NCBI RefSeq assembly: GCF_005871185.1
Contig: NZ_SWKN01000009.1
Coordinates: 1 to 64,000, forward strand
Length of the DNA: 64,000 bases
Source: Limnobacter alexandrii
Lineage (GTDB): Bacteria > Pseudomonadota > Gammaproteobacteria > Burkholderiales > Burkholderiaceae_B
Reading direction: 5' to 3'
The notes beneath the pieces are model-generated. The model was not told the DNA's origin. It did no database searches and was given only the letters and a program-made list of their open reading frames with translations. The position numbers and the translations under genes are program-made. Shown here piece after piece: positions 45,734 to 48,262 of this stretch (its first letter is position 1; every line of letters begins with the position of its first letter).

Positions 45734-45757
45734 AAACCCACCTTCGGGTGGGTTTTT
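45734..45757 (+). terminator. intrinsic terminator after erpA
   Basis: AAACCCACC (45734-45742) and GGTGGGTTT (45747-45755) form a 9-bp stem on a TTCG tetraloop, followed by Ts. Confidence 0.95.
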
Positions 45758-45796
45758 TATTGGCTTAATGCCCAAACACCAAACCCACACAAGCAA

Positions 45797-46696: not shown

Positions 46697-46742
46697 TCAA
46701 GCTGGTTTGTGTAGCCCGATCGGCTTGGGTTCCGCTTTCTCG

Positions 46743-47213
46743 ACTGCACGTTAACTGCCCACTCGGCGCGAGTTTCAATCTCTCGCCTGAAAACCTGGTT
46801 TTCCCTTCTTGAGATTCACCCTGACTCACCTCGCTCGGCAAAAGGGCGGGCCGAGTCTCGGTGCCGGCCCATGGCCGACCGTGGCGGGTGAATTCAAACG
46901 GGCAGGTTTTCTTGAAGGCGAGGCGATCGAAACACCGCCGCCGATTGGGCGTTGAACACTGCGGTGAGGCGGAGCTGAACTTGCAAGTGGCAGCGCACGG
47001 GAGGTTTTAAGCCAACTCGGCAGTGGGATTGCTTGAGACGCACTTCAAGAAAACCGCCCCGTTTGAGTTTATTCGCTGCGTTCGGCGCCAAGCCGACACC
47101 AAGACTCGGCCATGTTTTTTGCCGAGCGAGGTGAGCAAGAATAAAGTCAAAAAGGGATCAAGCGGTTTTCTGTGCGACACGAGCAACCCACGCCGAGTTG
47201 ACAGAAACTGCAG
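46743..47213. repeat. large imperfect palindrome built of degenerate repeats
   Basis: Two arms of over 200 bp each are inverted copies about a centre at 46980. Matching blocks, all symmetric to within 2 bp: ACTCGGCG 46761-46768 with CGCCGAGT 47191-47198; GAAAACC 46789-46795 with GGTTTTC 47164-47170; a 19-bp perfect block 46825-46843 with 47117-47135; GGCCGAGTCT 46849-46858 with AGACTCGGCC 47102-47111; TCAAACGGG 46894-46902 with CCCGTTTGA 47058-47066; and a 13-bp block 46905-46917 with 47043-47055. The inner 46918-47042 is weaker but still similar. No supported ORF. It fills the gap between convergent AEC and miaA genes. Confidence 0.8.
46789..46803. repeat. perfect local palindrome inside the large repeat
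   Basis: GAAAACC-T-GGTTTTC reads the same on both strands except for its central base. It lies in the left arm of the large palindrome; the right arm counterpart keeps only one half (GGTTTTC). Confidence 0.8.
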
Positions 47214-47301
47214 CGATGACCCATCAAGTTCAGATCAAAAGTCACCAGTGACAGGCGGCACAAGTAACCCATGCCGAGGTGGCAAGAAACCGCCGCAGTG
47301 A
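47176..47301. repeat. direct repeat pair, about 45 bp, period about 81 bp
   Basis: The segments 47176-47220 and 47257-47301 are diverged direct copies with the shared frame AACCCA(C/T)GCCGAG(T/G)TG(A/G)CA-GAAAC(T/C)GC. The first overlaps the right end of the large palindrome and the second reaches miaA. The same GAAACCGCC/GGCGGTTTC-like element recurs inside the palindrome, so both belong to one repeat family. Confidence 0.7.
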
Positions 47302-47305
47302 GCAG

Positions 47306-48262
47306 TCAGGGCAGCAATTCCTCGATCTGCTTTTGTATCCAAGGCCTCACTGAGTCAAGCCAATTGCTCTGCAAGGGATCAACCACCTCTTTGTTGGCAG
47401 TCGAACGCAGCCAGGTAATTTGCCGCTTGGCCAATTGGCGGGTGGCGGCAATGCCACGGTCTATCATTTCCTGCCGCGTGCAGTGGCCGTGCAAATGTTC
47501 CCACACTTGCCGATAGCCCACACACCGCATGGAGGGCATTGTGTCGTCCAACACGTAATTGTGACGAAGCTCAACAAGCTCTTCCACAAGGCCTTGCGCC
47601 AGCATGTCCAGAAAACGCGATTCAATGCGCTTGTGCAACACGGCCCGGTCAGAGGGTTCAATGGCCAGGGTGGGAATGCGCAAATCCTCAAGCTGGTCTC
47701 GCTGGTGAAAACCCGACAGCGGCTGGCCTGTAATTTGAAAAACCTCAAGGGCGCGCTGCAATCGCTGGGAGTCATTGGGTTTCAAGCGCTGGGCGGTAAT
47801 TGGATCAACCTGGGCAAGCCGGGCGTGAATGGCGGGCCAACCATGTTCCATGGCCTGTTGTTCAATGGCTTGGCGAATTTCTGCATTGGCGGCGGGAAGG
47901 TTGTCAAGGCCACTGACCAGCGTTTTGTAATACATCATGGTGCCCCCCAGGATAACTGGCACCTTGCCCCTCGCCCGGATATCTGCAATTAGCGCATGGC
48001 ATTGAACAACAAACTCAGCGGCGCTGAATGTGTCGCTTGGCGTGATGATATCGATAAGGTGATGGGGCACCAAGGCCAGTTCTTGAGGGGTGGGTTTGGC
48101 AGTGCCGATGTTCATGTCACGAAACACCAACGCAGAATCAAGACTGACAATTTCTATCGGAAAGCCTTGATCAGCCATCCACAGGCCCAAGGCGGACTTG
48201 CCTGAGGCTGTAGGCCCAAGCACCGCCAAGGCAGGAATGAAACCGGAACTGGAGCTGCCCAC
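47306..48262 (-). CDS. miaA: tRNA dimethylallyltransferase
   Basis: Transfers dimethylallyl to A37 of tRNAs reading U-starting codons; MiaB then methylthiolates it. The 318-residue protein has the P-loop GPTASGKSALG, the DSALVFRDMNIGTAKP motif and GGTMMYYKTLVSGL. It starts with GTG at 48262 behind a G-rich stretch. Last gene of tsaE-amiC-mutL-miaA. In E. coli hfq would follow, but here the palindromic repeat region does. Confidence 0.95.
   Translation of the reverse strand: MGSSSSGFIPALAVLGPTASGKSALGLWMADQGFPIEIVSLDSALVFRDMNIGTAKPTPQELALVPHHLIDIITPSDTFSAAEFVVQCHALIADIRARGKVPVILGGTMMYYKTLVSGLDNLPAANAEIRQAIEQQAMEHGWPAIHARLAQVDPITAQRLKPNDSQRLQRALEVFQITGQPLSGFHQRDQLEDLRIPTLAIEPSDRAVLHKRIESRFLDMLAQGLVEELVELRHNYVLDDTMPSMRCVGYRQVWEHLHGHCTRQEMIDRGIAATRQLAKRQITWLRSTANKEVVDPLQSNWLDSVRPWIQKQIEELLP

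What the first reader, a model, noticed from the sequence alone, without database searches (positions are those of the whole stretch)
46743..47213. Large imperfect palindrome of degenerate repeats between AEC transporter and miaA
At least six blocks, including a perfect 19-bp and a perfect 13-bp block, are inverted copies symmetric about one centre near 46980, giving a palindrome of about 470 bp. Motifs such as ACTCGG/CCGAGT and GAAAACC/GGTTTTC recur in both orientations. The DNA or its RNA could fold into one long hairpin. It lies between convergent genes, where hfq sits in E. coli. It could be a non-autonomous mobile element, a BIME-like array, or a bidirectional terminator.
Basis: seen in the sequence. 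Interest (0 to 1): 0.72.

Follow-up and report, generated by a model that had tools for sequence, protein, structure and literature searches.

The report
Limnobacter's paired folding repeats between genes
The gap holds one copy of a large folding DNA repeat that sits at dozens of largely shared places at gene ends in most Limnobacter genomes examined; it resembles known bacterial palindromic repeats but is far larger, and no enzyme that spreads it was found.

Summary
The palindrome is real: perfect 19-bp and 13-bp inverted blocks share centre 46980 and the region folds far better than shuffles (z -11.6). But one 470-bp hairpin is not the conserved thing. The AEC-miaA gap (46701-47301) is one copy of a dispersed Limnobacter repeat: two head-to-head units (A 46789-46915 +, B 47045-47170 -), each a branched three-way-junction hairpin on a lower stem. 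The unit fold covaries strongly (32 of 45 pairs changed on both sides). The model gives 59 hits in the own genome; among 151 family and 300 order genomes sampled, only this genus matched. Addresses are largely shared: 74 of 78 sites in other loci have flanks found in an own element locus, while contents turn over. None of 37 own gaps is divergent. The own genome has no Y1 transposase. GU pairs show no excess, which suggests a DNA-level fold. Best reading: a giant REPIN/BIME-like element, inherited in place and homogenised by recombination. It fails REP membership on tag, size and transposase, so it is a new variant.

The parts
46701..47301 (.). whole repeat element, filling nearly all of the AEC-miaA gap
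   Evidence: positions of the gap matched by at least three other own gaps run from 46701 to 47301
46789..46915 (+). unit A: 127-nt branched hairpin, base stem GAAAACCTG/CAGGTTTTC, 3' foot TTGA
   Evidence: covariance-model hit; structure and covariation
47045..47170 (-). unit B: 126-nt branched hairpin, base stem GAAAACCGC/GCGGTTTTC, 3' foot TTGA
   Evidence: covariance-model hit
46757..46788 (+). 5' arm of the lower stem of unit A
   Evidence: pairs with 46916-46950 in the left-half fold; limits by eye
46916..46950 (+). 3' arm of the lower stem of unit A
   Evidence: limits by eye
47003..47044 (-). lower-stem arm of unit B next to the centre
   Evidence: pairs with 47171-47211 in the right-half fold; limits by eye
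47171..47211 (-). outer lower-stem arm of unit B
   Evidence: limits by eye
46701..46756 (+). left outer module, related in sequence to the lower-stem arms
   Evidence: repeat matches; limits by eye
47212..47301 (+). right outer module
   Evidence: query 47170-47305 gives 22 matches in the own genome
45797..46696 (+). AEC-type transporter gene (convergent neighbour)
   Evidence: Pfam Mem_trans, E 1.3e-10
47306..48262 (-). miaA (convergent neighbour)
   Evidence: Pfam IPPT, E 6e-85

Best explanation
One copy of a Limnobacter-specific family of giant, REPIN/BIME-like DNA elements. Shown: a full element is a pair of branched hairpin units (124-143 nt) placed head-to-head, each with a TTGA or similar foot and a lower stem. 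Shown: the family sits at dozens of intergenic places, in the own genome none of them between divergent genes, and most addresses seen in other species are shared while unit subtypes change. Inferred: what is maintained is a fold of single-stranded or extruded DNA. Inferred: the elements were spread long ago by an unidentified enzyme that recognised the folded strand at its foot, as proposed for RAYTs on REPINs, and are now inherited in place and homogenised between addresses by recombination or gene conversion, with occasional gain and loss. They survive at gene 3' ends because there they break neither promoters nor reading frames; an effect on transcript ends would be secondary.
For: Dispersed in the own genome (79 matches; 59 model hits, G008 43, G010 90). 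Same-genus only: 6 of 151 family genomes and 2 of 300 order genomes match, all this genus. Covariation of the unit fold: 279 two-sided changed cells against 94.4 shuffled, 0 of 500 shuffles, lost on sliding. Addresses: 74 of 78. Turnover: subtype changes at shared sites; orthologue mean identity 0.863 against median paralogue 0.907 and best paralogue 0.968. 3' ends: own gaps 22 convergent, 15 co-directional, 0 divergent; other loci 35/22/0 against 45/225/53 without the motif (Fisher 2.5e-13 and 1.2e-4). Wobble: GU 22 against AC 47 after two positions are set aside; tRNA control 6 against 0. Filled and short sites.
Against: No spreading enzyme found. The wobble count including the two set-aside positions is GU 68 against AC 49, and read on the reverse strand 47 against 22 leans to RNA. 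Helix 4 pairs in only 79.8% of cells and one of its positions in 16 of 56. Against the median paralogue only 25 of 40 units are closer to paralogues; the 38 of 40 figure compares one orthologue with the best of many paralogues, which is biased. Shared addresses could also mean a function at those sites rather than passive inheritance.
Confidence: 0.5

Rival explanations
1. The elements work as RNA at transcript ends, as bidirectional terminators or 3' stabilisers. Each strand of a pair offers one forward unit, and the base GAAAACC...GGTTTTC resembles an A-tract/T-tract terminator stem.
For: Gene 3'-end location; conserved base stem; reverse-strand wobble lean of 47 to 22.
Against: No GU excess on the forward strand; the consensus scan found no terminator inside the element, though it cannot see large loops; the convergent pair does without an element in G012 and three species with near-zero gaps; no Rfam match at gathering score in 8 loci.
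Confidence: 0.2
2. The covariation is made by mutation, not selection: strand switching in hairpins copies one arm onto the other, so imperfect palindromes keep being corrected.
For: Changes are almost always Watson-Crick to Watson-Crick with rare mismatched intermediates of either kind; chimeric and remnant elements exist in G001 and G006.
Against: Unpaired bases are also conserved across diverged units (AAAA loop, TGA foot), and fixed bulges are kept; arm correction alone does not explain that.
Confidence: 0.12
3. An ordinary, currently active miniature transposon (MITE) moved in trans.
For: High identity among own copies (A units median 0.937); filled and short sites between species.
Against: Addresses largely shared (74 of 78); no common sharp outer end or target duplication evident by eye in 37 gaps; no match in plasmid records, no core motif in viral contigs.
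Confidence: 0.08

Closest known systems
REPINs / REP doublets with RAYT transposases (passages of PMC3116915 and PMC3733652 seen)
   Same: Extragenic, dispersed, inverted doublets of hairpin units, conserved short tag at one foot, mostly between convergent or unidirectional genes.
   Different: Units about 127 nt and branched rather than 20-40 bp (size from the abstract in the listing); foot TTGA instead of GTAG or CGTC; no Y1 transposase in the own genome and in 15 of 16 genus genomes; addresses largely shared between species.
BIMEs of enterobacteria (PMC2817692 abstract start in the listing; otherwise recalled)
   Same: Mosaic intergenic elements of alternating hairpin units at gene 3' ends.
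   Different: BIMEs are built from REPs and associated with RAYTs; these units are unrelated in sequence and several times larger.
ERIC sequences (recalled, no call)
   Same: Imperfect palindromes of about 127 bp in intergenic DNA.
   Different: ERICs are single elements; a head-to-head pair of three-way-junction units is not recalled for them. No sequence comparison was made.
Integron attC sites (recalled, no call)
   Same: Folded single-strand DNA with conserved extrahelical bases and variable stems.
   Different: No cassettes with genes and no integrase tested here; an analogy of working only.

Membership tests
REP / REPIN | GTAG or CGTC tag at one end | tested here: not met
   Foot is TTGA, sometimes CTGA; the last three bases are invariant in 56 of 56 aligned units
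REP / REPIN | Short unit, 20-40 bp | tested here: not met
   165 unit hits of 124-143 nt
REP / REPIN | RAYT (Y1_Tnp) in the genome | tested here: not met
   0 in the own genome, 1 of 16 genus genomes (G009, 6% contamination); control rings in 5 of 14 genomes
REP / REPIN | Inverted doublets | tested here: met
   22 of 22 own two-unit sites; 43 of 43 doublets
REP / REPIN | Extragenic and dispersed, avoiding divergent gaps | tested here: met
   gene calls from my own codon-usage caller
MITE | Terminal inverted repeats with target-site duplication | tested here: inconclusive
   Inverted organisation present; no duplication seen by eye at outer ends of 37 gaps or two compared addresses
Intrinsic terminator | Compact GC stem with T-run that ends transcripts | tested here: inconclusive
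   Consensus scan negative inside the element but limited to loops of 3-8; no transcript data
Known structured RNA (Rfam) | Match at a family's gathering score | tested here: not met
   Window stretch: only MIR1858 at 45.8 bits against 137; 8 further loci: none
ERIC | Sequence similarity to the ERIC consensus | not tested
   recalled resemblance only

The most novel reading that the evidence does not exclude
A cassette system of folded DNA: a few dozen largely fixed addresses at gene ends each hold one or a head-to-head pair of structured units, and an unknown Limnobacter machinery acting on folded single strands swaps unit types between addresses, somewhat as integron attC sites are handled, while selection keeps the addresses, perhaps for chromosome organisation or for insulating gene ends.
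Probability: 0.2. Interest if true: 0.8.

Novelty: new variant of a known kind. Interest (0 to 1): 0.6.

Why it matters
Dispersed bacterial palindromes described so far are mostly small, and REPINs are tied to a RAYT transposase. Here is a genus-restricted family of very large ones with a complex covarying fold, strict head-to-head pairing, largely shared addresses and no Y1 transposase in the own genome. It lets three questions be taken apart: how such repeats spread, how copies are homogenised between addresses, and whether a DNA fold as such is under selection. In drafts the elements probably also break assemblies, since several hits in G013 lie near contig ends.

Tried and rejected
Rejected: (1) One 470-bp hairpin as the conserved structure: in 18 of 22 own two-unit sites the whole fold is less than 15 kcal/mol better than two local folds, and covariation lies within units. 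(2) A RAYT-driven REPIN in the strict sense. (3) A coding element: the two small ORFs inside have no Pfam match. (4) Spread outside the genus: four hits (Terriglobia, Desulfobacca, Nitrospiria, Clostridia) show the motif without a recognisable unit (by eye); G054 is one marginal match (E 7e-4). (5) The sub-threshold Rfam match. (6) Uneven spread: 60 sites in the single-contig genome G010, from listed rows only, do not depart from uniform (KS p 0.51). (7) An autonomous element between the two C-type units of L208: three gene calls lie between them; none was searched against families, so this is open rather than excluded. Literature: searches pairing Limnobacter with repeat, palindrom and noncoding RNA listed nothing on this by title or abstract start; a general search gave one listing. 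Listings only, except passages of PMC12306157, PMC3733652 and PMC3116915.

Limits: gene calls come from my own codon-usage caller; large gaps (L051, L069, L209, L210) may hide genes. Units were collected by a regular expression; the covariance model was built from 56 of 151 distinct units, so its hits on the same loci are partly by construction. The structure was drawn by hand on the sequence alignment. G002, G011 and G015 have no match by BLAST and pattern; I saw no model result for them. One search counts a flank match anywhere in an own 4-10-kb element locus (about 5% of the genome in all). The gap counts include orthologous gaps, which are not independent. One search left out units over 131 nt. 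In one search four of ten loci, the own one among them, were not printed; the own gap there comes. My note says 12 of 15 same-genus genomes matched; the rows show 11 of 15. One search printed no usable tRNA structures and parsed none; searches did.

Full report
In 46743-47213 perfect inverted blocks of 19, 13, 10 and 9 bp lie on one centre, 46980; the longest block in 200 shuffles was 14. A 93-nt arm pair is 77% complementary, and the region folds at z -11.55.

The sequence is not unique. Against the own genome it gives 79 matches at E 0.001 or better, its 137-nt left unit 40 and its right end 22. All-against-all comparison of 37 own gaps shows that here the repeat fills the gap from 4 nt after the AEC stop to 4 nt before miaA. 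Pfam names the neighbours: an AEC-type transporter, miaA, and mutL beyond it.

The palindrome is made of two related units facing each other; some copies have one unit only. I collected 165 unit hits, 151 distinct, by the frame GAAAACC ... GGTTTTC TTGA, lengths 124-143. A further subtype with base GAAAACTTG ... CAAGTTTTC TGA appears 22 times, 12 of them own. A C subtype with a different interior sits at four own places and in L080.

The unit fold is a nine-pair base stem, a five-base bulge of mostly variable sequence, a CCC/GGG step, an inner stem, and a three-way junction with two hairpins, one carrying a conserved AAAA loop. On 56 units 90.5% of cells pair against 80.1% in shuffles; 32 of 45 pairs have a two-sided change; 279 cells are changed on both sides against 94.4 shuffled; sliding the partner destroys this. 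The weakest helix (helix 4) pairs in 79.8% of cells.

Two results bear on the level of the fold. GU pairs are not commoner than AC pairs: 22 against 47 after setting aside one conserved GU position and one mostly unpaired position, 68 against 49 with them; six tRNAs from the fetched loci have 6 GU and 0 AC in 125 pairs. And a single long hairpin is strongly favoured only in some A-B copies: of 22 other own two-unit sites, three by 39-49 kcal/mol, one by 21, 18 by less than 15; for the window's element -294.7 against -274.4 for two halves. I read this as maintenance of each unit's own fold, at DNA rather than RNA level. Read on the reverse strand the wobble count leans 47 to 22 towards GU, so an RNA from that strand is not excluded.

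Distribution. BLAST over 60 genomes: own genome, 11 of 15 same-genus, 0 of 20 others of the family, 1 of 24 of the order at E 7e-4. The covariance model gives 59 hits in the own genome, 43 in G008, 90 in G010. Of 151 family genomes 6 match, all same genus (1 of 43 genera); the same-genus genome G014 does not. Of 300 order genomes 2 match, both same genus (1 of 134 genera). The core motif occurs 35 times in the own genome and in 11 of 16 genus genomes, its reversed control never. It is absent from viral contigs; the element has no match in plasmid records. Record titles identify the genus as Limnobacter.

Location. Of 37 own gaps 22 are convergent, 15 co-directional, none divergent. In other loci, gaps with the motif are 35/22/0 (convergent/co-directional/divergent) against 45/225/53 without (Fisher p 2.5e-13 for convergent, 1.2e-4 for divergent). 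Known REPs also lie mostly in unidirectional and convergent gaps (passage of PMC3733652).

Stability and turnover. Of 78 sites in 76 loci of other genomes 74 have flanks found in one of the own element loci. At matched gaps the unit types change and sometimes the order is inverted. Units are on average closer to own paralogues than to the orthologous unit: orthologue mean 0.863, median paralogue 0.907, best paralogue 0.968; lower than the median paralogue in 25 of 40, than the best in 38 of 40, the latter being a biased comparison. At the AEC-miaA address the distance between alignment ends is 615 nt here, 660, 681, 554, 251, 725 and 665 in G008, G005, G007, G001, G010 and G009, 112 with only arm-like remnants in G006, 29 in G012, and 14, 1 and 4 in G014, G004 and G015; other genomes were cut by contig ends or incomplete. 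A second address is filled in G007, G010 and G009, holds what looks like a chimeric unit in G001, is short in G012 and G013 (77 and 79 nt), and has about 13 nt between matched flanks in the own genome.

Polarity. All 22 own two-unit sites are forward-then-reverse, as are the 43 doublets among the model hits listed for G010 (25), G008 (6) and the own genome (12); the remaining sites appear as single hits, some because the partner subtype is weakly or not listed.

Mechanism. Strict inverted pairing, a conserved foot and 3'-end location resemble REPINs, whose doublets are inverted and are predicted to be moved by a RAYT (passages of PMC3116915). But tag, size and transposase fail, so I do not file it there. 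I take it to work, or to have worked, in a similar way: recognition of a folded single strand for spreading, then inheritance in place with recombination between copies. Not shown: the spreading enzyme; homogenisation, which is inferred from identities; and the DNA level, which is inferred from the wobble count.

Noticed in passing
window 45735-45758: A canonical intrinsic terminator (hairpin AACCCACC-TTCG-GGTGGGTT followed by a T-run) follows the iron-sulphur gene, so compact terminators are used in this genome; seen by eye.
   Followed up: no
L190 and L226: In G001 both compared addresses hold what looks like a chimeric unit, 5' half of A-type fused to 3' half of B-type, as after a deletion between paired units.
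   Followed up: no
L208 1485-1610 and 5808-5933: Two nearly identical C-subtype units about 4.2 kb apart in opposite orientation, with three gene calls between them.
   Followed up: partly
G013 contig ends: Several hits lie within about 100 nt of contig starts, so the repeat probably breaks short-read assemblies.
   Followed up: no
L234, L235: G009 alone in the genus has two Y1_Tnp genes; relation to the elements not examined, and this assembly has 6% contamination.
   Followed up: no
L183, L186, L191, L192: Outer arms carry tandem degenerate copies of a short piece (by eye), so the lower stem varies in length between species.
   Followed up: no
L217, L219, L220: G010 holds far-diverged units in which even the base stem has changed on both sides, for example GGAAATTTG with CAAATTTCC.
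   Followed up: no
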